Virus record (IMG/VR): IMGVR_UViG_3300004097_000021
Coordinates: 1 to 34,929 of that record
DNA: 34,929 nt
Strand: one strand, 5' to 3'
Source: a virus
Shown here: piece after piece, positions 1-34,929 of the stretch
Numbering within the stretch: position 1 is the stretch's first letter
How the letters are laid out: every line of letters starts with the position of its first letter
Translations under genes and position numbers: made by a program
Notes under the pieces: generated by a model
Databases searched by the model: none
Told to the model about the DNA's origin: nothing
What the model saw: the letters and a program-made list of their open reading frames with translations, nothing else

Positions 1-3000
1 ATGATGGAATCACTTGGGAGTTTATAGGACCTAGAGATTCCATTTCTATATCAGTGACGGCCTCTGGAAGTGCTTTACCTTTAAATGACTTAACAGATGT
101 AAATGCTGCTGCTCCTAGCGCTGGTCAGATTTTAAGTTGGGACTCTACAAATTCAGAATGGATTGCAGGGCCATGGAATGTTACTGAAGTAGTCAGAGAT
201 GGCTTAACAGCAGCAACAGGTTCATTGATATACAATACAACTACGAACTTTTTGAATTATTGGAATGGTACTGAATGGCTTACTATTCCTGCGGGTGGTG
301 GTGATGCTACAGCAATTCATATTGATGCTGCTGGAGAGATAGCAGGTATTACTTTGAAAGCTTTACCAGTAGCTGCTGACCTTCTTGTTATAGAAGATAG
401 TGAGGCTGCAAATGCTAAAAAGAGTATTACAATTGGAACTATTGACCATGATTCTCTTGCTAATTTTGTAGCTAATGAACATATAGATTGGACTTTGGCA
501 GGGGCAGGAACGATAGATGTTTCTAACTATGTAGAGGGTGGCCCAGGCACAGATACAACTGCTTTCCATAGAGATATTAACGGAGAGTTTGCTTCTCTTA
601 CAGCGAAAACCATACCAGCAGCAGATGACTTCTTAGTTATAGAAAGTCTTGCAAATACTAATGCTAAAAGGTCTGTTACGTTTGCTAACCTTAATGCAAC
701 TATAGACCACGATGCTCTTACTAACTTTGTGGCCAATGAGCATATAGATTGGAGCGCAGCTTTAGCAGGTACTATAGATGTTTCCAACTACATCGAGGGT
801 GGGCCTGGAACAGACACAACTGCTTTCCATGATGTGGCCAATGAACTTACTACAAAAACAGTAATAAAAACTACTCCTACAACTGCAGATATTATTTTGA
901 TTCAAGATCAAGCAGATGCTGGGAATCTTAAACACGCTACTGTAGCCTCAATTGTTTCCTTGGGTGCAGATGCAGATGCTATTCATGGTAATGTTGCTGG
1001 CGAGATAGCTGCCTTAACTGAAAAGGCCGTTCCTGTAAGTGCAGATCTTTTAATTATAGAAGACTCTGCCGATAGTAATAATAAGAAGAAAGTACAGATA
1101 GGTAACTTGCCGGCCGGTGGCGGGGATACTACTAGAATAACAGATGGTGGTGCTGTTTGGGTAGATACTGATGAAGTAACAGATCAAGTAATAATGAATG
1201 TTGGTCTTACAGGTGGTGCACGGGCAATATGGAGTCAAACGAATGGCGGCCAGTTCGCTCTAAGGCCTAGCTCTGGCGGCACATCACCTACTATTGCATT
1301 TCAAGAACCTGATGGACTTCAAAACAATGTTATAAAACTAGGTGCTCCTCAAGTAGATGTTACTGAATATTCGATACAGCTACCTGCTGCTCCTCCTGGC
1401 GCAAACCAGATACTACAATCAGACGCTACTGCTGATGCCATTGCTATACTTAGTTGGGTAGATCCACCTGCAGGCGGAGGCTCAAGCTTTGAAATAAGAG
1501 ATGAAGATTCAGACACATACTTCACTACTCAACAAAATGGTGTAGGTACAGATTCAGACGCTTTATTTTGGCAACTAGGGGTCACTCCAGGAATCTACAC
1601 TGGTGTTTTTGATTCAGGTAATCTTCAGTTTAATTGGAATGATGGCACAGATATAAGTTATATTACTTTTTCAACTAATGATGGCCTATTAGATATTTAT
1701 AATCAGGTAAGTGATCAGGCAGGTATTAACTTGTTTGGTGGTACTAATTCTGCTTTCTCTGTAGCAGTAAAATCTCCTACAGGCTTAACGGCCAATTACA
1801 ACATCACTTTACCAACAGCAGGCCCAACAGGAGCAGGCCAGATCCTAGAGTCAGATGCTTCTGGGAATTTAAATTGGGTTACTCCTTCTGGAGTTGCTGA
1901 TGAAATCAGAGATGCTGATGGTGATACTCAGATCCAAGTGGAAGAAACTGCTGACGATGATACTATTCGTTTTGATGCTAATGGAACTGAAATTGGTGTG
2001 ATTGATTCTAGTGGATTCACTCTAAGTAGTGGGGTCTTTAGCGGCGATGGGTCTTCATTAACCAATATTGGATCATCCTCTATCTCTGATGGAAGTATCA
2101 CAGTTAATGATACTAGCTTTGGTTCGACTACCTCTACTCAAGAAGGTTTAAACATACCTACGGCAGCGACGGCCCCGACTAATGATAGTTTAGGTAATTT
2201 ACTTTCTACTGATGATAAAGGACAGTTCTATTTCAATACAACAGATAACAAGCTACAAGTTTGGGATGGAGACTCTTGGGAAGATAGTGCTGCAGGTTCC
2301 GATAGTATCATAGATGCTGATGGTGATACTTATATCACAGTAGATAAAGGTCCTGATTTTGATGAGATTAATTTTTATACTGGTTCTCAAGGAGCGAGGA
2401 CAGTAGATAATCCGGTTATGAAACTGAGGGACGTTTCACTTCAAATTAATTCCCGTAGCACTCGTATGCGTCCTTTAGATCACCTAGGGGATGTATGGAC
2501 GCAAGAGCAACCTGTCCTTACCGTTTCCAGATACTATGTACAGGGTAACGGCCTTAGTGAGGTTGCTAAGTTCGATTCTGAGTCATCGGCTGGCGGAGCT
2601 CTTGATGGTGATGGTGGATACATTTCTTTATTTTCACAGACTCCGGGCTTTGTCGCTATGAGGCCAGCAGTTCAATTGGCTTGGTTATTTACCAATGAAG
2701 CTAACGAGACCTTATCAGAGGGTTTATTTAGAACTTACTTAGAGGATCCTAATGATGGTGGTCTTAACCCAACCATGTCCTTGGCAACAGAGCTAAAGAT
2801 GGGCGAACTAACCATAAAAGGACTAAGCGGTGCCATTAACAGGTCTGCAAAGGTAACTCTCCATGATCAGGATAACTCAAATAAACTATCTATTAGTGCA
2901 CCAGCAAATGTTACTGTTGATAAAAATATCATCTTACCAACTGGCAACCCAATAACAGGACAAGTTCTAGAAGTAGTATCTATAAATAACCCTAACACTA

Positions 3001-3434
3001 ATGATGTCGAATTAGGTTGGGCAACTCCTTTATCTGGCGGTGGAGCTGGTACACAATATGTTTATACGGCCAACGGTGATGGTATCTCAACGGTGGTTCC
3101 AGATTCTCAATGGACAGCCGCTTGTGCTGATACTGATGGATGCACAGTTAGAATGATGATGAGAAGCTACTCTGCTACCGGGGATGCGGCACATTCTAAA
3201 GTTATTAGTTTTTACGTTAATAGTGGCTTCAATAATGCTTTTAGAATAGATGAACCAGCATTGAAAACAGGTAATGTGGGTAACAATATTAATCAGAATA
3301 TTATAGATCATTTCAGCTCTTGCAGATTTGAAGATTTTCAACAAGGCTTTACAGACTCCACTAACGATTTGTGGCTGAATAACTATTCAGCAGGCTTTAC
3401 AAATGATGTATGTATTCTGGTAATCGTAGACTAA
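1..3434 (+). CDS. Tail fibre protein, 5' end cut by the window
   Basis: The frame is open from base 3, so the GTG at 54 is internal and the true start lies outside the window. The first visible residues (DGITWEFIG) resemble a segment near residue 60 of the fibre gene at 32006 (DGGTTW), so an N-terminal piece is probably missing. The protein is long, rich in Gly, Asp, Thr and Asn, and built of short repeats: AIH/AFH...GE...K..P..ADLLIIEDS, DHD.L.NFVANEHIDW, NTT.N.L..W.G..W, and QILESDASGNLNWVTP-like linkers. These are typical of phage tail fibres. The C-terminal ~130 residues are non-repetitive and contain four cysteines; this is probably the receptor-binding tip. Host adsorption is inferred from family and position after the structural genes. 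Four small + strand genes follow. Fibre identity is confident; the receptor is unknown. Confidence 0.85.
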   Translation, partial: DGITWEFIGPRDSISISVTASGSALPLNDLTDVNAAAPSAGQILSWDSTNSEWIAGPWNVTEVVRDGLTAATGSLIYNTTTNFLNYWNGTEWLTIPAGGGDATAIHIDAAGEIAGITLKALPVAADLLVIEDSEAANAKKSITIGTIDHDSLANFVANEHIDWTLAGAGTIDVSNYVEGGPGTDTTAFHRDINGEFASLTAKTIPAADDFLVIESLANTNAKRSVTFANLNATIDHDALTNFVANEHIDWSAALAGTIDVSNYIEGGPGTDTTAFHDVANELTTKTVIKTTPTTADIILIQDQADAGNLKHATVASIVSLGADADAIHGNVAGEIAALTEKAVPVSADLLIIEDSADSNNKKKVQIGNLPAGGGDTTRITDGGAVWVDTDEVTDQVIMNVGLTGGARAIWSQTNGGQFALRPSSGGTSPTIAFQEPDGLQNNVIKLGAPQVDVTEYSIQLPAAPPGANQILQSDATADAIAILSWVDPPAGGGSSFEIRDEDSDTYFTTQQNGVGTDSDALFWQLGVTPGIYTGVFDSGNLQFNWNDGTDISYITFSTNDGLLDIYNQVSDQAGINLFGGTNSAFSVAVKSPTGLTANYNITLPTAGPTGAGQILESDASGNLNWVTPSGVADEIRDADGDTQIQVEETADDDTIRFDANGTEIGVIDSSGFTLSSGVFSGDGSSLTNIGSSSISDGSITVNDTSFGSTTSTQEGLNIPTAATAPTNDSLGNLLSTDDKGQFYFNTTDNKLQVWDGDSWEDSAAGSDSIIDADGDTYITVDKGPDFDEINFYTGSQGARTVDNPVMKLRDVSLQINSRSTRMRPLDHLGDVWTQEQPVLTVSRYYVQGNGLSEVAKFDSESSAGGALDGDGGYISLFSQTPGFVAMRPAVQLAWLFTNEANETLSEGLFRTYLEDPNDGGLNPTMSLATELKMGELTIKGLSGAINRSAKVTLHDQDNSNKLSISAPANVTVDKNIILPTGNPITGQVLEVVSINNPNTNDVELGWATPLSGGGAGTQYVYTANGDGISTVVPDSQWTAACADTDGCTVRMMMRSYSATGDAAHSKVISFYVNSGFNNAFRIDEPALKTGNVGNNINQNIIDHFSSCRFEDFQQGFTDSTNDLWLNNYSAGFTNDVCILVIVD
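288..1115 (+). repeat. Degenerate tandem repeats in the fibre shaft
   Basis: Four diverged copies of one protein unit begin at AIH or AFH codons at 312, 561, 822 and 978. Copies 1 and 2 also share the DHD.L.NFVANEHIDW...GTIDVSNY.EGG half, giving periods of about 249 and 261 bases. Copies 3 and 4 are shorter. A further copy (AIHDNVSGEI...DLVIIEDS) lies in the second fibre gene near 32921-33003. Confidence 0.75.
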
Positions 3435-5063: not shown

Positions 5064-5286
5064 AAATTTCTATGCCTCCACGAAGGTTCAACTTAGGAAA
5101 GCTACTTTTCTTTTCTTTACCTTCAAATAGATAATTAACATAGACTCTATCTAGTTTCTTATCTAATCTCATTGATAAAACCTCATCAGCGTGTCCTAAA
5201 TGGTTTAATATTTGCGTAATCCTAAGATCCTTAACTTCCTCCATATTATCCATTTTGATTTTATGGCGGTCAAACTTTTTACTCAT
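5047..5286 (-). CDS. Hypothetical protein
   Basis: 79 residues, ATG at 5286 with AAGGGA about nine bases upstream. It overlaps the end of the CsrA-like gene upstream by eight bases and the following lipoprotein gene by 17 bases, so it is embedded in the operon. The N-terminal part is basic (MSKKFDRHKIKMD); the middle reads as helix (EEVKDLRITQILNHLGHADEVL); the C-terminus looks like beta strands (LDRVYVNYLFEGK, GGIEIYGF). No cysteine pairs or membrane segment. I do not recognise a family. Its tight link to the CsrA-like gene leaves open a joint regulatory role. Confidence 0.65.
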   Translation of the reverse strand: MSKKFDRHKIKMDNMEEVKDLRITQILNHLGHADEVLSMRLDKKLDRVYVNYLFEGKEKKSSFPKLNLRGGIEIYGFVN

Positions 5287-5455
5287 TGTAGTCCCTTATG
5301 TGTTCAGGTCTTTCTATTTTAAGTTCTTTATCAGCATGAATTATAAGCTTGAATTTATTTTTTCCTGCTACTCCAGCAACTTTAATATCAATAGGCCCTA
5401 TGGTTATCTTTTCTTCGCCTCTAACCACTAGAACTAATCTTCCTTTATTCGTCAT
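5279..5455 (-). CDS. csrA: CsrA/RsmA-like RNA-binding translational regulator
   Basis: 58 residues, the usual size for CsrA (about 60). It aligns by eye with CsrA along its length: LVLVVRGEEKITIG matches LILTRRVGETLMIG, then IDIKVAGVAG matches the VTVTVLGVKG strand, and ADKELKIERPEHI matches APKEVSVHREEIY. The RNA-contacting arginine of the C-terminal strand (Arg44 in E. coli) is kept as Arg49, and Glu46 as Glu51; Glu45 is replaced by Pro. CsrA dimers bind GGA in RNA hairpin loops, often at ribosome-binding sites. The ATG at 5455 has AGGGG upstream and avoids overlap with the preceding gene; a TTG at 5476 is the alternative. Four early genes in this window carry GGA-loop hairpins at their starts and are candidate targets. 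No structure search was possible. Confidence 0.75.
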   Translation of the reverse strand: MTNKGRLVLVVRGEEKITIGPIDIKVAGVAGKNKFKLIIHADKELKIERPEHIRDYNE

Positions 5456-5463
5456 ACATACCC

Positions 5464-5679
5464 CTAAGATTGCCAATTCAGATTATTTTTACACGCCTTA
5501 CAAACTCTATTAACCTTGCTTTTACTCCAAAATTGCTTGTCACAACTAAGACACTTACGCTTTTCTTTGCCTGATGAAACATCTTCAACTTCTTTACAAT
5601 ACTTGCAAAGCCTTCTGGTATCGCCATCAGAGATTTTCCACCAGAAGGACTCACAACAAAGCCTGCACTTTCTTTTCAC
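5464..5679 (-). CDS. Tandem zinc-ribbon protein
   Basis: 71 residues, GTG start at 5679 that overlaps the previous stop (GTGA); GGAAG lies upstream. The protein is an internal duplication of one unit, RKC..C...FW.K....R.CK.CK: the first copy has cysteine pairs at 5/8 and 25/28, the second at 43/46 and 60/63, so each copy can hold one zinc ion. Both copies are basic and aromatic. Such small treble-clef or ribbon proteins in phages usually bind nucleic acid or a host protein, for example RNA polymerase or a nuclease; the partner is unknown. It lies directly before the CsrA-like gene in the early operon. Confidence 0.7.
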   Translation of the reverse strand: MKRKCRLCCESFWWKISDGDTRRLCKYCKEVEDVSSGKEKRKCLSCDKQFWSKSKVNRVCKACKNNLNWQS

Positions 5680-6143
5680 GCAGACTTCCTTTTATTTGCT
5701 ATGTGTTCAGCTCTTAACTTTACCCATTTTTTGTACTCGTCATGGCTCATAGTTTTATGACCTCTAAGCGTAGGATAATGGGCCATCCTTGTATTTCCAT
5801 TCTCACAATTACATCTAAAAGCAGACGAGTAAGGCTTAGGCTTGCCAGACATAGGACATTTTTGAACTACATACCTAACAACAATTCCAGTAGAATCACA
5901 CATAGTGCATGGTGTAAAGCTTTCCGCTTCCATCTCAGCCCTAGCCATCATTAGCCTATTATCAAAATCTTTCATGGTAGGCGTGAAGTTATTGTTTCCG
6001 ATAATATCATTTACTGCCTCAGTAAAATCATCGTTCTCAATATTTTTATATCTAAGCCAAATTAACTCTACTCGTTCTTCTGCAAAGTTTCTGAAACAGC
6101 TCTGGATTCTACCTATCTGTACTTGGAAATGGGTTCTATGCAT
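5676..6143 (-). CDS. Possible replicative-helicase-loader-like protein with zinc motif
   Basis: 155 residues. The N-terminal part (about 15-62) has a helical pattern ending PTMKDF that resembles the N-terminal domain of G39P-like phage helicase loaders. This is a weak match by eye. The middle (79-113) has CTMC, a lone C96 and CNC with Gly-rich spacers, a probable zinc site; the C-terminus is basic. The ATG at 6143 directly follows a hairpin that holds the Shine-Dalgarno sequence in its loop, and that hairpin overlaps the stop of the ERF gene. Position beside recombination genes suits a replication role. A general zinc-finger nucleic-acid-binding protein is the alternative. Confidence 0.5.
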   Translation of the reverse strand: MHRTHFQVQIGRIQSCFRNFAEERVELIWLRYKNIENDDFTEAVNDIIGNNNFTPTMKDFDNRLMMARAEMEAESFTPCTMCDSTGIVVRYVVQKCPMSGKPKPYSSAFRCNCENGNTRMAHYPTLRGHKTMSHDEYKKWVKLRAEHIANKRKSA

Positions 6144-6159
6144 ACTAACTCCTATTAGT
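6144..6159 (-). promoter_or_regulatory. Shine-Dalgarno hairpin, candidate CsrA site (copy 1)
   Basis: Read on the - strand: ACTAA, loop TAGGAG, TTAGT, then ATG at once. The stem is five perfect base pairs and the loop holds AGGAG. The 5' stem contains the TAA stop of the ERF gene (6157-6155), followed directly by an in-frame TAG, so ribosomes finishing ERF would reach and open this hairpin. Confidence 0.7.
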
Positions 6160-6757
6160 TTTTATTGCGCAAAAAATGGCGTGCATTATTTATAAAGTGA
6201 GTAGCTTGGTCATTCAAGTCTTCTTGCGTCGATAGCCACTTACAATAATCAATCAAGTCATTCCTATCTACCTCATTAAATCTCTTTCCCTTCATTTTAC
6301 CCATTGGGATGATATAATCCTCGATCTTCCCAATAGAATCGCTCGCAGAGGCATTTACGGGTTTATCAGACCCATGCTTGTTAGTGCTATCGCTGTCTTT
6401 GCTATCATCTATGCAAAATAATCCGTTAAGCGCATATTTTCGAGCATAACTAGAAGTTGATCCAGTTAATTGACTGGAATCCATCCCTTTCTTATTTGCT
6501 TCTTCACGAGCAAAGCCCTGAGCTGATATAGATTCTTCATTTAAAGAAATAGTAGCAGTCGCTTTGATATAGATTCTATCTCCAACAGCAACTATGTCAT
6601 CATTGATTACTAATACACAGGGAGCGAGTAAAGGCTTCAAAGCCTCTAATATATCTTCGCAACTACGATAATTGTACTTCCCAAAATTATTTCTTTGGTT
6701 CTTTGGTGCTTTGAGTTCTCTTTGGATCTTTGCTAAATTCTTTTGTAATTCACTCAT
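6155..6757 (-). CDS. erf: ERF-family single-strand DNA annealing protein
   Basis: 200 residues. ERF proteins anneal complementary single strands in phage recombination and genome circularisation. Family signs are the N-terminal helix and PKN..NNFGKYNYRSCEDILEALKPLL (about 18-44), the beta-rich core (INDDIVAVGDRIYIKATATI), and the signature SSYARKYALNGLFCIDD at about 102-118. After a Ser/Asp-rich linker, the C-terminal ~55 residues (PMGKMKGKRFNEV...YCKWL) resemble the small DUF3820-type domain, an uncommon tail for ERF. TAGGAG lies before the ATG but without a paired stem. It lies downstream of the RecE-like exonuclease with a homing endonuclease between, so exonuclease and annealing protein probably work as a two-component recombination system. 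Confidence 0.85.
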   Translation of the reverse strand: MSELQKNLAKIQRELKAPKNQRNNFGKYNYRSCEDILEALKPLLAPCVLVINDDIVAVGDRIYIKATATISLNEESISAQGFAREEANKKGMDSSQLTGSTSSYARKYALNGLFCIDDSKDSDSTNKHGSDKPVNASASDSIGKIEDYIIPMGKMKGKRFNEVDRNDLIDYCKWLSTQEDLNDQATHFINNARHFLRNKN

Positions 6758-6769
6758 TTTTTTCTCCTA

Positions 6770-7306
6770 TTATAAATGCGCCCATTTTCTCTTTTGGGCA
6801 ATGTGGGCAATTGTGCTTTTACTTATTCCAAACATACCAGCGATGGTACTGTAGGAATGCTCTTTTTCGGCCACAAGCTGCTTAATTTCAATAACTTGAG
6901 ACTCTGTTAGTTTTGCTGCTGGATTCTTTTCTCCAATAGGTCTTGGGACTAAACCCATCCTAAATGCGTGTAGAGCGTTTCCACTAGCACAAATCCATTC
7001 CAAGTTAGCTAATCTATTGTCATTTTTGATGCCGTTCATGTGGTTTATTTGAGGCAAATTATCAGGATTGGGGATAAATGCTATTCCAACAAGTCTATGC
7101 ACTTTAAAAAAATTTTTCTCCCTATTCTTATATAAAACAACAGTTTCATAACCCCTATTGGTGCTTGGACGTAAGAATTTGCCTTTAATATTTCTATGCC
7201 CATTCTTAAACTTTGAAGTCCTATCAAGGGAGCGGACTCTCCCCTGATTAGATACTTCATATAAACCTTCAAAACCTTTAACTGGCTTCCATATTTCTTT
7301 TGCCAT
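6770..7306 (-). CDS. NUMOD4/HNH homing endonuclease
   Basis: 178 residues with three recognisable parts: NUMOD4 at the N-terminus (about 4-30, EIWKPVKGFEGLYEVSNQG), an HNH nuclease core (VHRLVGIAFIPN...INHMNGIKNDNRLANLEW) and a C-terminal helix-turn-helix (about 132-172, LTESQVIEIK...SYSTIAGMFGISKSTIA) that would read the target DNA. Free-standing HNH genes of this kind nick or cut DNA of related phages and spread themselves. It starts at 7306, the last base of the exonuclease gene, and sits between exonuclease and ERF, a pair usually adjacent, so it is probably a later insertion. GAGGGGGG precedes the ATG. All domains look intact. Confidence 0.9.
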   Translation of the reverse strand: MAKEIWKPVKGFEGLYEVSNQGRVRSLDRTSKFKNGHRNIKGKFLRPSTNRGYETVVLYKNREKNFFKVHRLVGIAFIPNPDNLPQINHMNGIKNDNRLANLEWICASGNALHAFRMGLVPRPIGEKNPAAKLTESQVIEIKQLVAEKEHSYSTIAGMFGISKSTIAHIAQKRKWAHL

Positions 7307-8124
7307 TATAAACCCCCCTCAAGTTTCTGTTCTGCGGCCTCAAGCTCATAAATAGGAAGTTCTATGTCTACAACCTCATTAGAATATCCAAAGTCTTTAG
7401 AAGGCTTATCACTTGCTTTAAATTCTGCAAGATCAGTAAGGGCTGCCGCATATCTTTTTCTACCTGCTAATAATGACTGAGCATCTAACCTGTAAACACC
7501 AACAGCAAATGGAGCAGTTTTCTCAACAGCGATGAAGATAAAGTCATTAACTTGATCGGTTCCTTCTAAATTAACTGTGTCCATGTAATAGGCAGCTTGG
7601 AGGTGATAGTTAAACTTCATAATTGAGCGCATGAAGCCTTGTGGGGAGGCATCCAAAGTAGACTTGATATCAACTATAGTATTACCTTTTCTGTAATCTA
7701 AACGGCACTTTCTTTCGATATTTAAAGCATCTTTTGCAAAGTAACTCATCTCAGACTCGCCTCCACTTAGAAGGTTTTCCGTTACTGGATTATCTAGGAT
7801 TGCCTTGGCCATTTCATTGGCCTGCTTCCAGATGTCACTAGATACAATAGTCTTAAGTTCGGCTTCTTCCAAAAACTCAGCGTAAAGTGCTTTACCTGAC
7901 TTTGTTCTTCTATCTACTACTGGCTTTACAGCATAAGCATCTTCTACCGTTTCAGGCTCAAGAATTAGAGCGTGTAACAACTGACCTAATAAAAGAGCGT
8001 CAGTCTGCTCGAGTTTTTGATTCACAGCGTGGTAAACACTTTTCTTATCAATCGTCTTTAATGTAGTTGATCCTACTGCTGGTGAATTGTGATAATCTGC
8101 ATTACTAATTAGTCTTTTTGTCAT
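7306..8124 (-). CDS. RecE-like PD-(D/E)XK exonuclease
   Basis: 272 residues. It resembles the nuclease domain of RecE (exonuclease VIII) and related phage exonucleases that resect double-stranded DNA to give 3' tails for an annealing protein. Visible motifs: GQLLHALILEPE (47-58), an acidic stretch GGESEMSYF (121-129), RLDYR with Asp143, VDIK with Asp152 and Lys154 (the D...DxK metal site), and HLQAAYYMD (174-182), the usual QxxxY helix. Length fits a full domain. It is the first gene of the - strand operon; AAAGGAAAG lies before the ATG and a promoter candidate lies about 35-60 bases upstream. The downstream ERF gene is the expected partner. Confidence 0.85.
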   Translation of the reverse strand: MTKRLISNADYHNSPAVGSTTLKTIDKKSVYHAVNQKLEQTDALLLGQLLHALILEPETVEDAYAVKPVVDRRTKSGKALYAEFLEEAELKTIVSSDIWKQANEMAKAILDNPVTENLLSGGESEMSYFAKDALNIERKCRLDYRKGNTIVDIKSTLDASPQGFMRSIMKFNYHLQAAYYMDTVNLEGTDQVNDFIFIAVEKTAPFAVGVYRLDAQSLLAGRKRYAAALTDLAEFKASDKPSKDFGYSNEVVDIELPIYELEAAEQKLEGGL

Positions 8125-8156
8125 CTCATCTTTCCTTTGTTTGAGTTTATGAATCA

Positions 8157-8185
8157 GTCATATCAAGCTGAGTAAACGATTGCAA
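8157..8185 (-). promoter_or_regulatory. Candidate early promoter for the - strand operon
   Basis: On the - strand TTGCAA (8185-8180) and TATGAC (8162-8157) are 17 bases apart, a sigma70-like arrangement. The start point would fall near 8150, giving a leader of about 25 bases to the ATG at 8124. Not tested; AT-rich DNA gives chance matches. Confidence 0.45.
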
Positions 8186-8772
8186 TACTTTTTTTTAATT
8201 ATTATTTACTTGTAGCGTTAGATTTATTTTGGGCATAGTTACCCTTAAGATCAGAAGTTCATTGGCAGGATGTCGGCTGAAGCCGCCAATAACAAGTTAT
8301 GTAGCTGAGTAAGTAAGCTTTGCGATCCTACATTGCTTTCTATTAGTTATCACTCCACCTCCTAACTAATTTGTAGCAATTAATGTTTAGTTAAAGTTGT
8401 TTTTATTTTTACTATCCAGAGGGCCAGCCCCCCACTCTAGGGGCGTTAGGCCCGTCTATGATTTATTTATTGAAAATTATGTAGTTCTAAAATATTGTGC
8501 TGAATACGAAATGGAGAATATTAAACTAAAAGAAGAAAAGAATATATTATTACTCGAAGAAAATCTTTTTCCCCCTTACCACACGCTTCCCAGCCGTTCG
8601 CATGGAGCTTTCGCCGCTCACTGGGAGCATTTTATCGTTAGGTCACGAAAAGTCAAAAATCATAACCTTGCAATTATCAAACACTTACAAGCTTCACTCG
8701 ATACTTAAGGCCTAGTAATTATAGGGATTTTATGAAATATTTTTAGCTCAACTAAAAAAATAGGAGATGTGC
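8186..8772. other. Non-coding control region with GC-rich hairpins
   Basis: I see no convincing gene here. Three inverted repeats stand out from the AT-rich background. At 8261-8290, ATTGG...CCAAT encloses CGGCT-GA-AGCCG, with CAGGATGT bulged on one side. At 8421-8453, GGGCC...GGCCC encloses GCCCC...GGGGC. At 8585-8628, GCTTCCCAG...CTGGGAGC encloses GAGC...GCTC. The region lies between the - strand early operon and a + strand nuclease gene. Candidate contents are a small RNA, a replication origin or operators. A 103-codon frame at 8397-8708 runs through two of these structures and is probably not a gene. Confidence 0.55.
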
Positions 8773-9180
8773 ATGGATGATGTGATTTTAAATGGTTGCC
8801 CCTTTAAAGCAATAAAGAAATATGTTTTTTGGACGAGGGACATTGGCAATACCAAAACCCAATACGAAGTAGATTACTATGTCCCTGAGATTGGCCTAGC
8901 AATAGATCTAAAAGGCAGAGGTAATGCCTATATGAGAAGGGCATTGCTAAGACAAAAAGGCGTGAAGATTATGCTTCTAAACCCATCAGACCGCCCCAAT
9001 TGGAAAAGTATAGCTGAGAATATGCCTAAAGTAGAAGAATCCTTCAAAGACGAAGATAAGGACTTTAAAGGCAGAGAAGAACTATACCTTCAAGAAGAAA
9101 AACTCAAATATAATGGTTACGATATCGTCGAACCTAAAAGAAATATGACAGCAGCAGAAGCTTTAGATATGGCACAATAA
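8773..9180 (+). CDS. PD-(D/E)XK nuclease, possibly Holliday-junction resolvase-like
   Basis: 135 residues from the ATG at 8773, chosen because AGGAG (8762-8766) is correctly spaced; an ATG at 8767 would touch it. The segment YEVDYYVPEIGLAIDLKG carries Asp34, Asp45 and Lys47, matching the D-x(n)-(D/E)-x-K metal site of small PD-(D/E)XK nucleases such as T7 endonuclease I. A conserved-looking helix with arginines (YMRRALLRQKGVKIMLL) and NPSDRPNW follow. Such enzymes resolve branched DNA before packaging. The C-terminal 50 residues are charged and helical. The gene stands alone on the + strand within the early region, ending at a bidirectional terminator. A restriction-like or other nuclease role is not excluded. 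Confidence 0.65.
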   Translation: MDDVILNGCPFKAIKKYVFWTRDIGNTKTQYEVDYYVPEIGLAIDLKGRGNAYMRRALLRQKGVKIMLLNPSDRPNWKSIAENMPKVEESFKDEDKDFKGREELYLQEEKLKYNGYDIVEPKRNMTAAEALDMAQ

Positions 9181-9185
9181 AAAAA

Positions 9186-9204
9186 GGGGAGCAAAAAACT
9201 CCCC
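9186..9204. terminator. Bidirectional rho-independent terminator
   Basis: GGGGAG, loop CAAAAAA, CTCCCC, followed by TCTTTC on the + strand and preceded by a run of A that gives a U-tract on the - strand. It sits six bases after the + strand nuclease stop and 30 bases before the end of the convergent - strand gene at 9234, so it can serve both. Confidence 0.8.
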
Positions 9205-9233
9205 TCTTTCGTCTAACTACAATAACAAATATT

Positions 9234-9449
9234 CTAGTGGTGGGTAATGTATTCTAATTGATCGTCGGCGATTAGGTCAAGAAGCTCGCAATTATCACAA
9301 CCAAAAAAAGCAAGATCATCAGCAGTTTCTAGCTCTAGCTCTTTTCTGATTCCGCAACACTCGCACACATCAGATTCACATTCAGCCTGAAGCAAGTTGT
9401 GTCTAATTAGGTATTCTGTCTCAATTTGGTTAAATTCTAAAAAACTCAT
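9234..9449 (-). CDS. Small acidic zinc-ribbon-like protein
   Basis: 71 residues from the ATG at 9449, which directly follows a hairpin holding the AGGAG Shine-Dalgarno sequence; the longer frame from 9482 lacks a site. Cysteine pairs CECC (29/32) and CDNC (51/54) can bind one zinc. The protein is strongly acidic, unlike the basic ribbon protein at 5464-5679, so it may bind a protein rather than nucleic acid. It follows another zinc-ribbon gene with the same start architecture and ends at a shared terminator. No family recognised. Confidence 0.7.
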   Translation of the reverse strand: MSFLEFNQIETEYLIRHNLLQAECESDVCECCGIRKELELETADDLAFFGCDNCELLDLIADDQLEYITHH

Positions 9450-9465
9450 AATAACTCCTATTATT
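9450..9465 (-). promoter_or_regulatory. Shine-Dalgarno hairpin, candidate CsrA site (copy 2)
   Basis: On the - strand: AATAA, loop TAGGAG, TTATT, then ATG at once. Five perfect pairs. The loop is identical to the other copies while the stem differs from copy 1 at two positions with pairing kept. Confidence 0.7.
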
Positions 9466-9471
9466 AATATG

Positions 9472-9630
9472 TTAAGCGTCAATATCTCTTAAATCTTCTA
9501 AACAACAATCTTGGCAAATAAAGCCATTGTGGTGTCTTGAGTAGTAAAGATCATTATGTTCTGATTTACAGTAAGGGCATGCTTTAGGTACTGCGGTGAT
9601 TTGTAATGCTTCTAATTCAAATTCATTCAT
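9472..9630 (-). CDS. 52-residue zinc-ribbon protein
   Basis: The frame runs from ATG at 9630-9628 to TAA at 9474-9472, which is 22 bases before the next start. Cysteine pairs CPYC (18/21) and CQDCC (39/42) frame a His/Tyr-rich middle (YYSRHHNGF), a compact zinc ribbon. The ATG directly follows the strongest of the four Shine-Dalgarno hairpins. The two start and stop junctions, the ribosome-binding site and the metal motif together make this a solid gene despite its size. The next gene has the same start architecture and is also zinc-ribbon-like, suggesting one short operon. Confidence 0.7.
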   Translation of the reverse strand: MNEFELEALQITAVPKACPYCKSEHNDLYYSRHHNGFICQDCCLEDLRDIDA

Positions 9631-9648
9631 ACTTAACTCCTATTAAGT
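9631..9648 (-). promoter_or_regulatory. Shine-Dalgarno hairpin, candidate CsrA site (copy 3)
   Basis: On the - strand: ACTTAA, loop TAGGAG, TTAAGT, then ATG at once. Six perfect pairs, the longest stem of the set, with an extra pair inserted relative to copy 1. Confidence 0.75.
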
Positions 9649-9677
9649 TGTTTCTTGTAAGAGTACACTATCTAAAT

Positions 9678-9703
9678 AAAAAAGGGCCGTCAATAGACAG
9701 CCC
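9678..9703 (-). terminator. Rho-independent terminator after the gene at 9730-9963
   Basis: On the - strand GGGCTGTC, loop TATT, GACGGCCC, then six U. The stem is eight pairs with one G-U. It lies 26 bases past the stop of the 77-residue gene and 30 bases before the hairpin of the next gene, so that next gene needs its own promoter or readthrough. Confidence 0.7.
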
Positions 9704-9729
9704 CAAAAAAAATAAACTTTTTTACTTTT

Positions 9730-9963
9730 TTACTTATAAGATGAGAAGTTAAGAAGTAAAGCATCAAGAGCTTCTAATTTGGCCGAATAATCTGCAATTT
9801 GTTTTGAATAGTAAGAAGCGTCATCATTCCAGCCATGCTCTTTGATGATTTCGTTTAACCTTTTTGAGTAATTAGCAAGAAAGCTCTCATAAACCTCATA
9901 AGCTAATTGAGCTTGGACTGTTTGGTTTGTACTGTTTGATGTAGGGGATTTTTGTAGTTTCAT
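9730..9963 (-). CDS. Hypothetical helical protein, first gene right of the early region
   Basis: 77 residues, ATG at 9963 one base after a Shine-Dalgarno hairpin like those at 9450 and 9631. After a polar Ser/Thr/Asn/Gln-rich N-terminus, two likely helices follow (QAQLAYEVYESFLANYSKRLNEII and SYYSKQIADYSAKLEALDALLL) with heptad-like spacing, so a coiled coil is possible. No cysteine or membrane segment. It is divergent from the HTH-terminase operon across about 100 bases and ends at its own terminator. Function unknown. Confidence 0.7.
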   Translation of the reverse strand: MKLQKSPTSNSTNQTVQAQLAYEVYESFLANYSKRLNEIIKEHGWNDDASYYSKQIADYSAKLEALDALLLNFSSYK

Positions 9964-9964
9964 T

Positions 9965-9978
9965 CTAACTCCTATTAG
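9965..9978 (-). promoter_or_regulatory. Shine-Dalgarno hairpin, candidate CsrA site (copy 4)
   Basis: On the - strand: CTAA, loop TAGGAG, TTAG, one unpaired A, then ATG. Four pairs; an A-A mismatch replaces the outer pair found in copy 1. This is the weakest of the four. Confidence 0.55.
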
Positions 9979-10063: not shown

Positions 10064-10474
10064 ATGAGCGAAAAAGGTTTAAAAAAAAATTGGAAGTATA
10101 AATGCGATTGGCAAAGCAATTTTATTTCTAATGTAGAACACGTTATCAAGTGTTTAGGTATCTCAAAGAGGGAACTAAGTCGGGATACAGGGCGTAATTG
10201 TACGTATTGGAACGACGTAATATCGCAGAATAGGGCAATAACATTGCATCAAGCCGTAAATATTTCTTTGGTTTTAGACTTCTTGGTTGATGATCTTATA
10301 AAGAATCCAGAAGTATTTGAGGATACTGCCTCAAAAAAGATAGATAAATGGCAGGAAAGGATGAAAGCTAGTGAAAGACAAAGAATCAGAATCGAAATTA
10401 AAAAAAGAGCCTACGAGAAGGAAAAACGTGGGTGTAAAGGCAAGCAGAAAACGATTCAACCCTCAACAGTTTGA
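10064..10474 (+). CDS. XRE-like helix-turn-helix DNA-binding protein
   Basis: 136 residues from the ATG at 10064; a TTG at 9992 is an earlier alternative but would place the divergent promoter region in the gene. Residues about 20-75 (NVEHVIKCLGISKRELSRDTG.....WNDVISQNRAITLHQAVNISLVLD) follow the five-helix XRE/Cro pattern, including the LGISKRELSR turn. The C-terminal third is very basic (KKRAYEKEKRGCKGKQK) and may wrap DNA. The start of the small terminase gene lies inside its 3' end. It could be a repressor of the divergent early gene or a packaging-associated DNA-binding protein. No strong ribosome-binding site is seen. Confidence 0.6.
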   Translation: MSEKGLKKNWKYKCDWQSNFISNVEHVIKCLGISKRELSRDTGRNCTYWNDVISQNRAITLHQAVNISLVLDFLVDDLIKNPEVFEDTASKKIDKWQERMKASERQRIRIEIKKRAYEKEKRGCKGKQKTIQPSTV

Positions 10475-31499: not shown

Positions 31500-32003
31500 A
31501 TGTCTAATTTTGTATATTTGAATGGAGTTATAGTAGATGAAGCTACAGCTTTCGCAGGCGGTGGCGGCGGTGGAGGAACAGGTGGTCTTGTCCAGTTTAC
31601 TAGAGATGGCGCAACAACAACTGTATTACAAGATACCGTAACGCCAGCGAACGATATACCACTGCCAGTAGCAGTAGTAAGTGGTGGAACAGTCAACAGA
31701 AGTGTTGTAGATTTTATTGCTACTCCGATTGATTCCTCTGTAACAAATATACCAGCTTCAGCTAGTCCGCCTTTAGGGATACATACTTTAGCAGCAGACA
31801 TAGTTAAGATCCAAGTAATAGAGGATATCGGCGAGTTTATGGCCCTTTACGATGATGCAGCAGGGACGAACCGTATCTGTAATTTGCCTCTAGGTGGTGG
31901 AGTCGTGGAGGTTGTTAGGCCAGCAGGGACTGGTATTTTTATAAGATCCCTTTTTAATACTGCAATTAATAGCGGTACAATTGTAATGAATTTTGTGGGG
32001 TGA
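31500..32003 (+). CDS. Fibre-base or fibre-associated protein with Gly hinge
   Basis: 167 residues, start codon directly after the previous stop. A short N-terminal segment (MSNFVYLNGVIVDEATAF) is followed by a Gly-rich hinge (AGGGGGGGTGGLVQF) and a beta-rich body (TTVLQDTVTPANDIPLPVAVV, ...) ending IVMNFVG. The hinge and beta composition fit proteins that link fibres to the tail. It lies directly before a fibre gene, two bases away. No named family recognised. Confidence 0.6.
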   Translation: MSNFVYLNGVIVDEATAFAGGGGGGGTGGLVQFTRDGATTTVLQDTVTPANDIPLPVAVVSGGTVNRSVVDFIATPIDSSVTNIPASASPPLGIHTLAADIVKIQVIEDIGEFMALYDDAAGTNRICNLPLGGGVVEVVRPAGTGIFIRSLFNTAINSGTIVMNFVG

Positions 32004-32005
32004 TA

Positions 32006-34929
32006 ATGCGTAATCTATTAATTTTTATCTTTATGTTTCTCTCATTTCACATAAAAGGCAATGCTCAAAACGCTGCAATATTTAGCGGTGATGGGGTCAA
32101 GCTTTTAAAAAATACGCTAAAGTTTAAAGATACAGATGGTGGTATCAGGTTTGAATCTGGAGGCCTCGAAACTACTGTTGATGGTGGAACTACATGGACT
32201 CCTCTTGGTGGCGGTGGTACTAGCTCAAGTTCTCTCCAATTAGTTGATGCCGATGGTGATAGTACGGCGGATTTTTTTGCTGATGATGCTTTTTTTATTA
32301 AGCTTGTTAATCAATCAGATTTTACTTTTAAAGTCGATGGACTTTTCACAACTCTAACAAACGTCTTCAAGATAGATACTACTAATAATTTCCTGCCGCT
32401 AATAAACCCTATTTTAACTAATACATCTGGTAGCGAAGATCAGGTTGAAACTTATTTAAAATTTGAACATAAAATGGATGTCTCATCTACTCCAACAGTT
32501 GGTTTTGGTGCGGAACAGTCAGTTTGGCTTGAAAATTCAGTTAATCTATTAGAACACGCTTCAAAGATTGAAACTAAATGGACAGACGTTACCAATACTG
32601 GTGAAGATGCTGTCCTTACATTTTCGGTATTTACGAATGGAATACCTGATCCAGTTGAACATATTAAACTTGAGAATAATGAGCTTCATTTACTATCTAG
32701 GGCCGGTGTTGAAGGGAAGGTAGTTTTCCATGAACAAGGTACAAATGGAACTGATACTTTTACTATTTCTGCTCCAGCTTTAGGGCAAAGTAAAGCATAC
32801 ACATTACCGAACCAAGAACCCGCCGCCCTTGTTCCACAGTCTCTTTTAGCTGTCACACCAACAGGCGTAATGAGTTGGGTTGATCCTGCTTCTTTAGGCA
32901 CTAGCACTGATGGAGATGCAATCCATGACAATGTTAGTGGTGAAATATTAGCTATAGCGACAAAGACTGCATTAGAAGGGAATGATCTAGTTATTATCGA
33001 GGATTCTGCCACTACATTTAGTAAAAAAGGAACAAGTCTTGAAAATATAAAACTTTTTACTTTAGATAGTTTAATAGATGGTCAAGTATTAGACTCTACG
33101 CCTGATCCTGCAAATGATACCGTTCTTACTTGGGATTCTGATGCCTCATCATTTAAAAAAGTTTTAATTCAAGATTTAAGTGGCGGCGCTAATGATCCTA
33201 CTAGAATAAATGATGGCGATAACGACACATTTGTAGATACTGACCAATTAACTAATACCATTAATATGGGCGCTCTCCAAATAGTGATGAGTGTTGGAGG
33301 TAGAAATGCAGTCTACGATGATCTAGGTAACTTTACACTTTATGGTCTGCCAGGTGATCTTTTAGATAGAGGGTCGCTTGTTCTTGTTGAGCCTGATCTC
33401 AATGGTTCTAATAGGATCTCGCTAACGGCCCCTTTATTTGTAGATAATGATTATAAAATATGGTTACCTGAAAACGAAGGTGTTGCGGGCCAATTCCTTT
33501 CTGCTAATAATGTTTTTACTGACGGATCTACACAAGCAGTTAGCCTAGGTTGGACAAATCCTTTTAGAATACAAGATGGGGATAACACTACATTTGTAGA
33601 TACCACTGCCTCATTAGATACTATAAATATGCAGGCTGGTAACGGTATCAATGACTCAACTGTAACACTTACTAACTCTGCTCTTACTGTCAATGCCGCT
33701 TATGTAGCTATGGTAACAGATAACCATGTTGTCTCTATTAGAGAGGACTTATTTACTGGTAAAGGTTATGCAGCTTTATATGCTAATTTTCCTTTGGGTG
33801 ATCCAAAACTAGATACAGAAGTAATGGAGTTAAGGTTTTACGGGCCTTTTAATGATGGTAGTAATTATGTTGGACTTGAAGCTCCTGATGATTTAACGGC
33901 TACTTATACACTAAAACTTCCAACGACTGCCCCAGCAGATAATCTTGTATTAAAAGCTACAGGTACTGAAGGTCAGCTTGCATGGGGTGCTGGTAGCTCT
34001 GTTTCTATTCAAAATGTGACAGCGTATCCAACTAGTTCTACAGATGCTCTTGCTACAGATGTTGGGCTAATATCTTTTGATGATGGATTAGCAGCGTCTG
34101 GCAGTAACGCAGTTATTTCTGTTAAGCTTGATATGGACGATTTTCCTGAGCAGACAGATACTAACCTTATTTTACCTAGTTATAAAATTCTTATGGATAA
34201 TGGTGTATCGCCACAGTTAATTAACTTATCTAATATTCCAAATTTAGGGAAACCAAGTATTTATGATAATGGTGTTCTTGTTACTACTTATGCTGATGCA
34301 CTAGACTTTAAAAATGGGATAATAGCTAGTGATGCGACTGTTACAGATACGCCTTATATATATATTGACCACAATTTAGACCTCATTGCTTCAGATGGAA
34401 CTGACTCAAACGGATCTTTATCTATTTACGACGGAACTGGAAATGGAAATAATAAAGTAACAATAGGTGTAGTTGATGACGTTTCTGCCGATCAAACAAT
34501 ACTTTTCGGCGGAGATACACCTTTTGATAATCAATCAATGGTTATAAACTCAGATGGAACTGTTCGATATGAGTATGGTGCATTTCAAATCGGCTGCGAT
34601 ATGGAGGAAAGACTCGACAACAATGTAGACGGTCAAGTAGGTGTTGGTGACGGAAATGCAGCTTCGGAATACGATGTAAGAAAGTTTTCTAGTAAAGTTG
34701 GAAATTGTAGCTGGCTAACAGAGGGAACGAAAACAGCTAATACTGACTACGCACAAGACGAATATTGGGAAAGCTTTTTTCTACCTTTTGGAATCTATAG
34801 AATTACTTGTGAGACAGATGTTTGGAATCAAAGTGGTACAAATTCTCTTTATATGCACTATGCTCTTTATGCTCCTAGTGCTGACCAGTTTTCTACAACT
34901 TGCTCTACGGTTCAAAGACTATATGCAGG
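32006..34929 (+). CDS. Second tail fibre-like protein, 3' end cut, with predicted signal peptide
   Basis: The frame is open from ATG at 32006 to the end of the window (974 codons plus two bases). It begins MRNLLIFIFMFLSFHIKGNA, which reads as a Sec signal peptide with cleavage after GNA, unusual for a phage fibre. The body is a fibre: DADGDST.., AIHDNVSGEI...DLVIIEDSA, two copies of INDGDNDTFVDT-like segments (about 33207 and 33573), and ILESD-type linkers. Related segments occur in the fibre at 1-3434. The last ~100 residues contain several cysteines and aromatic strands (GNCSWLTEG, FGIYRITCETD), probably the start of the tip. A surface adhesin of bacterial origin is an alternative. Confidence 0.75.
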   Translation, partial: MRNLLIFIFMFLSFHIKGNAQNAAIFSGDGVKLLKNTLKFKDTDGGIRFESGGLETTVDGGTTWTPLGGGGTSSSSLQLVDADGDSTADFFADDAFFIKLVNQSDFTFKVDGLFTTLTNVFKIDTTNNFLPLINPILTNTSGSEDQVETYLKFEHKMDVSSTPTVGFGAEQSVWLENSVNLLEHASKIETKWTDVTNTGEDAVLTFSVFTNGIPDPVEHIKLENNELHLLSRAGVEGKVVFHEQGTNGTDTFTISAPALGQSKAYTLPNQEPAALVPQSLLAVTPTGVMSWVDPASLGTSTDGDAIHDNVSGEILAIATKTALEGNDLVIIEDSATTFSKKGTSLENIKLFTLDSLIDGQVLDSTPDPANDTVLTWDSDASSFKKVLIQDLSGGANDPTRINDGDNDTFVDTDQLTNTINMGALQIVMSVGGRNAVYDDLGNFTLYGLPGDLLDRGSLVLVEPDLNGSNRISLTAPLFVDNDYKIWLPENEGVAGQFLSANNVFTDGSTQAVSLGWTNPFRIQDGDNTTFVDTTASLDTINMQAGNGINDSTVTLTNSALTVNAAYVAMVTDNHVVSIREDLFTGKGYAALYANFPLGDPKLDTEVMELRFYGPFNDGSNYVGLEAPDDLTATYTLKLPTTAPADNLVLKATGTEGQLAWGAGSSVSIQNVTAYPTSSTDALATDVGLISFDDGLAASGSNAVISVKLDMDDFPEQTDTNLILPSYKILMDNGVSPQLINLSNIPNLGKPSIYDNGVLVTTYADALDFKNGIIASDATVTDTPYIYIDHNLDLIASDGTDSNGSLSIYDGTGNGNNKVTIGVVDDVSADQTILFGGDTPFDNQSMVINSDGTVRYEYGAFQIGCDMEERLDNNVDGQVGVGDGNAASEYDVRKFSSKVGNCSWLTEGTKTANTDYAQDEYWESFFLPFGIYRITCETDVWNQSGTNSLYMHYALYAPSADQFSTTCSTVQRLYA

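What the first reader, a model, noticed from the sequence alone, without database searches (positions are those of the whole stretch)
6144..9978. Four co-varying Shine-Dalgarno hairpins that look like CsrA sites, in a phage that encodes a CsrA-like protein
On the - strand the starts at 6143, 9630, 9449 and 9963 share one design. The loop is TAGGAG in all four, holding the Shine-Dalgarno sequence. The stems differ but stay paired: ACTAA/TTAGT, ACTTAA/TTAAGT, AATAA/TTATT and CTAA/TTAG. The ATG follows the stem with zero or one base between. Compensatory changes around a fixed loop suggest selection for RNA structure. CsrA/RsmE proteins bind GGA in hexaloops of the form ANGGAN, often over ribosome-binding sites; here GGA sits at positions 3-5 of a hexaloop. 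The same early region encodes a CsrA-like protein (5279-5455). I infer a phage post-transcriptional switch repressing or timing these four genes. Host CsrA could instead be the ligand.
Basis: partly seen in the sequence, partly recalled or inferred. Interest (0 to 1): 0.9.

Follow-up and report, generated by a model that had tools for sequence, protein, structure and literature searches.

The report
Four hairpin-shaped phage ribosome-binding sites
An environmental phage starts four of its early genes with near-identical ribosome-binding sites whose flanks pair into small hairpins; the pairing looks real rather than accidental, but the idea that the phage's own CsrA-like protein controls them is possible and not supported by related phages.

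Summary
On the - strand, genes at 9963, 9630, 9449 and 6143 begin with TAATAGGAGTTA, flanked by arms that stay complementary through both-sided changes. In 114 unrelated viral contexts with the same core, the arms pair no more than chance; four sites this well paired arise with P about 8.5e-5. A CsrA-family gene is present (PF02599, 30.6 bits, cut-off 27), and CsrA-like genes also occur in three further lineages of the same newly traced phage family.

The proposed link is weak. The loop is UAGGAG, not ANGGAN. Each leader has one GGA within 70 nt and no ANGGA. The csrA-bearing relatives lack the hairpin. A covariance model finds only these four sites. In relatives the same core recurs as a ribosome-binding site without paired arms. 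The hairpins are weak (-0.6 to -3.2 kcal/mol), and in local context they dominate in only two of four leaders.

Best reading: an early-gene ribosome-binding site of this lineage, wrapped in this genome in a small SD-presenting hairpin that acts in cis. Control by CsrA is a live minority hypothesis.

The parts
9965..9978 (-). SD hairpin 1, CTAA(TAGGAG)TTAG, one base before the ATG at 9963
   Evidence: sequence; pair probability 0.97 or more in local context
9730..9963 (-). gene behind hairpin 1, 77 aa, no family, no homologue in the phage family
9631..9648 (-). SD hairpin 2, ACTTAA(TAGGAG)TTAAGT, flush with the ATG at 9630; upstream ACTCTTA can pair with the SD instead
   Evidence: sequence; hairpin probability below 0.1 in context; alternative fold
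9472..9630 (-). gene behind hairpin 2, 52 aa, zinc-ribbon-like Cys pattern (weak)
   Evidence: Zn_Ribbon_TF E 0.006, below cut-off
9449..9466 (-). SD hairpin 3, TAATAA(TAGGAG)TTATTA, the last pair using the A of the ATG at 9449
   Evidence: sequence; hairpin probability about 0.1-0.3 in context at 25-37 C
9234..9449 (-). gene behind hairpin 3, 71 aa, Cys pairs, no family
6144..6159 (-). SD hairpin 4, ACTAA(TAGGAG)TTAGT, flush with the ATG at 6143; the TAA stop of the ERF gene lies in its 5' arm
   Evidence: sequence; pair probability 0.8-0.9 in -60..+60 context
5676..6143 (-). gene behind hairpin 4, 155 aa, Cys-rich, no family
5279..5455 (-). CsrA-family protein, 58 aa; its own start has no SD hairpin
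   Evidence: PF02599 30.6 bits, cut-off 27; R49 and K43 conserved
6155..6757 (-). ERF single-strand annealing protein; its start has AATAGGAG without arms
   Evidence: PF04404 E 4e-38
7306..8124 (-). exonuclease VIII-like protein, marks the early recombination operon
   Evidence: phrog_412 E 3e-70
9683..9704 (-). intrinsic-terminator-like hairpin between gene 1 and gene 2

Best explanation
The four sites are one ribosome-binding-site module used for early genes. Its core, AATAGGAG(TTA) placed 5-6 nt before the ATG, is a preferred early-gene Shine-Dalgarno context of this phage lineage. In this genome four of the six early copies are additionally wrapped in a short A-U-rich stem that puts the SD in the apical loop, flush with the start codon. 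The stem is too weak to block ribosomes by itself. I infer that it works in cis: it keeps the SD exposed and stops it pairing with neighbouring RNA, so that these small early genes start efficiently. Shown here: sequence, pairing beyond chance, restriction to early genes, recurrence of the core in relatives. Inferred: that the RNA hairpin forms, and its effect on translation. No trans-acting ligand is needed, but none is excluded.
For: Four exact cores only at four early starts. AATAGGAG also precedes the early genes at 6757 (-) and 8773 (+) but none of the late genes listed. The same core with ATG at the same distance recurs at starts in relatives: 9 of 25 phage records with at most one mismatch and none on the reversed control pattern; three copies in L269. 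Arms pair beyond chance. Hairpin energies are -0.6 to -3.2 kcal/mol. The hairpin leaves most of the SD exposed at 9963 and 6143.
Against: At 9630 and 9449 the predicted fold in context pairs the SD with upstream RNA instead of exposing it, the opposite of what a protective hairpin should do, unless transcripts start nearby or folding is co-transcriptional. The arms are not seen at the core in any relative. No expression data.
Confidence: 0.45

Rival explanations
1. CsrA operator: the phage CsrA-like protein, or host CsrA, binds GGA in the loop over the SD and represses or times the four early genes.
For: CsrA-family gene in the same early strand region with the R44-equivalent kept (essential according to PMC7366521). 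GGA in a hexaloop on a stem over an SD. RsmE also binds A-GGA-X loops lacking N with micromolar affinity (PMC4005645), which UAGGAG could mimic. CsrA-like genes recur in the family and are known in phages (PMC7366521).
Against: Loop U instead of A at position 1. One GGA per leader and no ANGGA, although CsrA usually uses two or more sites. No SD hairpins in csrA-bearing relatives. The csrA-like gene itself has no such site. The R6-equivalent residue of the protein is Val.
Confidence: 0.27
2. Coincidence on a shared ribosome-binding site: the core is the selected element, and arm complementarity arose by chance and copying (6143 and 9963 share 14 nt).
For: The core recurs with unpaired arms in relatives and in 83 of 114 unrelated viral contexts. 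Patterns chosen after reading a whole window have a large look-elsewhere factor. Hairpins do not dominate at two sites.
Against: P about 8.5e-5 given the core; the 9630 version needs a symmetric insertion in both arms and the 9449 version both-sided changes.
Confidence: 0.17
3. Operator for another RNA-binding factor: a RegA-like repressor or a RegB-like GGAG nuclease silences these early mRNAs.
For: T4 RegB cuts GGAG in early translation initiation regions (PMC3014915). The loop is invariant beyond what an SD needs.
Against: No RegB-family hit in the record (PF10715). RegB sites are protected by structure and have an A-rich 3' context; RegA sites lack structure (PMC3014915).
Confidence: 0.07
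4. DNA operator: the dyads are binding sites for a phage repressor on DNA; the SD is only the spacer.
For: All pairs are Watson-Crick, so pairing fits DNA as well as RNA. A protein with an HTH-like look to the eye (no Pfam hit) is encoded divergently from 10064.
Against: No copy of the C/G-containing arms anywhere else in the window, including the divergent promoter region, with any other 6-nt spacer. Every copy sits at a start codon, one of them inside an operon at the end of the ERF gene.
Confidence: 0.04

Closest known systems
CsrA/RsmE target hairpins over ribosome-binding sites (for example P. fluorescens hcnA, loop ACGGAU)
   Same: GGA at positions 3-5 of a six-base loop on a stem, overlapping the SD next to the start codon; a CsrA-family gene in the same phage.
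   Different: Loop begins with U, not A; stem almost all A-U and weak; a single GGA per leader; no binding shown.
CsrA homologues carried by phages (30 phages listed in PMC7366521; PHROG 9500)
   Same: Small CsrA-family gene in a phage genome, arginine for the first G conserved.
   Different: More divergent: Pfam score just over cut-off, no tblastn match in 50,697 phage records.
T4 RegB GGAG sites / RegA operators in early mRNAs
   Same: Many early genes marked at the SD for post-transcriptional control.
   Different: No RegB gene found; T4 sites are unstructured.
Repeated leaders before small early genes in relative G051 (L339)
   Same: Several unrelated small early genes share one leader in a phage of the same family.
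   Different: There the leader is an identical repeat of about 25 nt with a CCC/GGG hairpin upstream of the SD, not around it.

Membership tests
CsrA/RsmE protein family (5279-5455) | Match to the family profile | tested here: met
   PF02599 30.6 bits against cut-off 27; NCBIfam csrA equivalogs well below cut-off
CsrA/RsmE protein family (5279-5455) | Arginine equivalent to E. coli R44 | tested here: met
   R49 invariant in the alignment of four phage proteins and E. coli CsrA
CsrA/RsmE protein family (5279-5455) | Intertwined beta dimer fold | tested here: inconclusive
   AlphaFold monomer model with four sequences, pLDDT 58
CsrA/RsmE RNA target site | GGA exposed in the loop of a stem-loop at the RBS | tested here: inconclusive
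   present in isolated folds; dominant in context at two of four sites
CsrA/RsmE RNA target site | ANGGAN loop sequence | tested here: not met
   loop is UAGGAG in all four; no ANGGA within 70 nt of the starts
CsrA/RsmE RNA target site | Usually two or more GGA sites per leader | tested here: not met
   one GGA within 70 nt on either side of each start
CsrA/RsmE RNA target site | Direct binding by a CsrA protein | not testable with these tools
   needs a gel shift
Covarying conserved RNA element | Both-sided compensatory changes among copies | tested here: met
   3 of 6 pairs within this genome
Covarying conserved RNA element | Recurrence in related genomes | tested here: not met
   covariance model finds nothing below E 0.29 in 45 sources besides the window; the four genes have no homologues there
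T4 RegB system | RegB nuclease gene | tested here: not met
   PF10715 absent; the record may be incomplete

The most novel reading that the evidence does not exclude
A phage-encoded, divergent CsrA has evolved its own loop code (UAGGAG on an A-U stem) and acts as a dedicated translational repressor or timer of a set of phage early genes: a self-contained phage Csr regulon.
Probability: 0.18. Interest if true: 0.75.

Novelty: new member of a known kind. Interest (0 to 1): 0.36.

Why it matters
CsrA genes in phages have been catalogued but, in the papers read here, without known phage targets. If these four leaders were targets, they would give a compact, testable phage regulon and show what a phage gains from carrying CsrA. 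If not, the case is a useful warning: an AT-rich ribosome-binding site that recurs in a lineage supplies the loop and inner pairs of a CsrA-like hairpin by itself.

Tried and rejected
Close relatives by single-protein scans: none for TerL, the CsrA-like protein or the 155-aa protein; an aligned terminase was needed. Rfam: nothing at gathering, nothing credible at E<1. Exact hairpin CTAATAGGAGTTAGNATG in IMG/VR: 37 contigs falling into about half a dozen unrelated groups, one copy each, so no second genome with a set. ERF-gene relatives: 49 records, no CsrA. CsrB-like sponge in 8126-8766: GGA density 1.09 per 100 nt against 0.84 for the strand, fold z -1.5, rejected. Structure of the CsrA-like protein: low confidence, not searched further. 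Repeated RBS words in relatives as analogues: L269 and G051 only. In one search the count of GGA sites for G055 is inflated by an edge error; one search repeats it correctly. Host: a single TerL relative in a Methylococcaceae MAG contig, which may be a mis-binned phage contig, so the host stays unknown.

Full report
WHAT IS THERE. The window is one virus record of 34,929 bases, 37.7% G+C, with late genes on the + strand and recombination/early genes mostly on the - strand: exonuclease VIII-like 8124-7306, HNH endonuclease 7306-6770, ERF 6757-6155, a 155-aa Cys-rich protein 6143-5676, a small Cys-rich protein, and a CsrA-family protein 5455-5279. Upstream lie three small genes at 9963, 9630 and 9449, with terminator-like hairpins after the first (9704-9683) and beyond the third (9185-9205). 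The genes at 9963, 9630, 9449 and 6143 all start with TAATAGGAGTTA, the only four copies in the window, each flanked by complementary arms and placed zero or one base before the ATG.

IS IT MORE THAN CHANCE. Three tests agree. (a) A strict scan for SD-in-hexaloop hairpins flush with a start finds these four plus one spurious site inside a gene; first-order random sequence gives 0.9 on average. (b) The same core and ATG spacing in 114 distinct unrelated viral contexts shows arm pairing at the chance level (27% at pair 4, 31% expected); four random draws match the window with P about 8.5e-5. (c) Re-pairing the arms within the window gives 0.74 expected against 4 observed, P 0.0035. Three pairs show both-sided changes, and sliding the partners destroys the signal. 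Limits: the pattern was picked after reading the window; 6143 and 9963 share 14 nt; and the inner three pairs belong to the core, so only the outer pairs carry information.

WHAT THE CORE IS. An aligned terminase uncovered the phage's family: records of about 35 kb with 40-53% TerL identity and shared portal and capsid. In that family AATAGGAGTTA(N)NATG is a recurrent ribosome-binding site: 9 of 25 phage records within one mismatch, none on the reversed control; L269 uses it three times. There the arms are not paired. In the window AATAGGAG is restricted to early genes, including 6757 (-) and 8773 (+), where it has no arms. Loop and inner pairs are therefore explained by the ribosome-binding site; the outer arms are the special feature of this genome.

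DOES THE HAIRPIN FORM. Isolated hairpins fold at -0.6 to -3.2 kcal/mol, with U.G closing an AGGA tetraloop. With 60 nt on each side the hairpin dominates at 9963 (0.97 or more) and 6143 (0.8-0.9), but not at 9630 (below 0.1), where upstream ACUCUUA captures the SD, nor at 9449 (about 0.1). Transcript starts are unknown. From general knowledge of translation initiation, stems this weak do not block ribosomes.

THE CsrA LINK. The 58-aa protein is a CsrA-family member by Pfam (30.6 bits, cut-off 27), though weak by NCBIfam, and its structure model is inconclusive. It keeps R49, equivalent to the essential R44, and K43. CsrA-like genes also occur in G055 (clear, E 4e-17), G052/G053 and G063 of the same family, the latter two lineages below the Pfam cut-off. 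Phage-borne CsrA is known (PMC7366521). Against a link: the high-affinity site is an ANGGAX hexaloop directly on a stem (PMC4005645), while here position 1 is U; each leader has a single GGA and no ANGGA within 70 nt; csrA-bearing relatives lack SD hairpins; a covariance model finds only the four sites. A mitigating point is that RsmE binds A-GGA-X loops lacking N with micromolar affinity, and a phage CsrA could have its own preference. The four genes have no homologues in the relatives, so the failure to recur is weak evidence.

VERDICT. Observation confirmed; interpretation partly supported. Most likely this is an early-gene ribosome-binding-site module carrying a weak SD-presenting hairpin that acts in cis (0.45); CsrA control 0.27; coincidence on a shared site 0.17; another RNA-binding factor 0.07; DNA operator 0.04. 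The cis function is inference; no tool here measures translation.

Noticed in passing
L339 (G051) - strand 4472, 4309, 4026: Three tandem unrelated small genes share an identical leader of about 25 nt, TTAAATAACCCTTATGGGTATGGAG, just before the ATG; a CCC/GGG hairpin sits upstream of the SD. A shared early leader in a relative of this phage.
   Followed up: partly
L326 1222-1668 (G055): Clear CsrA domain (E 4e-17) with a C-terminal extension in a 149-aa ORF of a related phage.
   Followed up: partly
window 9670-9630, - strand: ACTCTTA upstream of gene 9630 can pair with its SD (TAGGAGT), mutually exclusive with the SD-loop hairpin; a possible two-state leader.
   Followed up: no
window 8126-8766: 640-nt region without a clear gene between exonuclease VIII (-) and the + gene at 8773, containing ATTAGTTA-GGAGGTGGAGTGA-TAACTAAT (8-bp stem) and G+C-rich stems; no Rfam match, fold z -1.5.
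   Followed up: partly
window 1-3434 and 32000-34929: Long, similar-looking repeat-rich ORFs run off both ends of the record, perhaps one tail gene cut by linearisation; at a direct junction the frames differ, so not shown.
   Followed up: partly
window 10064-10474, + strand: Divergent gene next to the 9963 promoter region, HTH-like by eye (SKRELSRDTG...), no Pfam match; candidate repressor.
   Followed up: no
L351: TerL relative (46%) on a 17.8-kb contig of a Methylococcaceae MAG; a possible host hint or a mis-binned phage contig.
   Followed up: no
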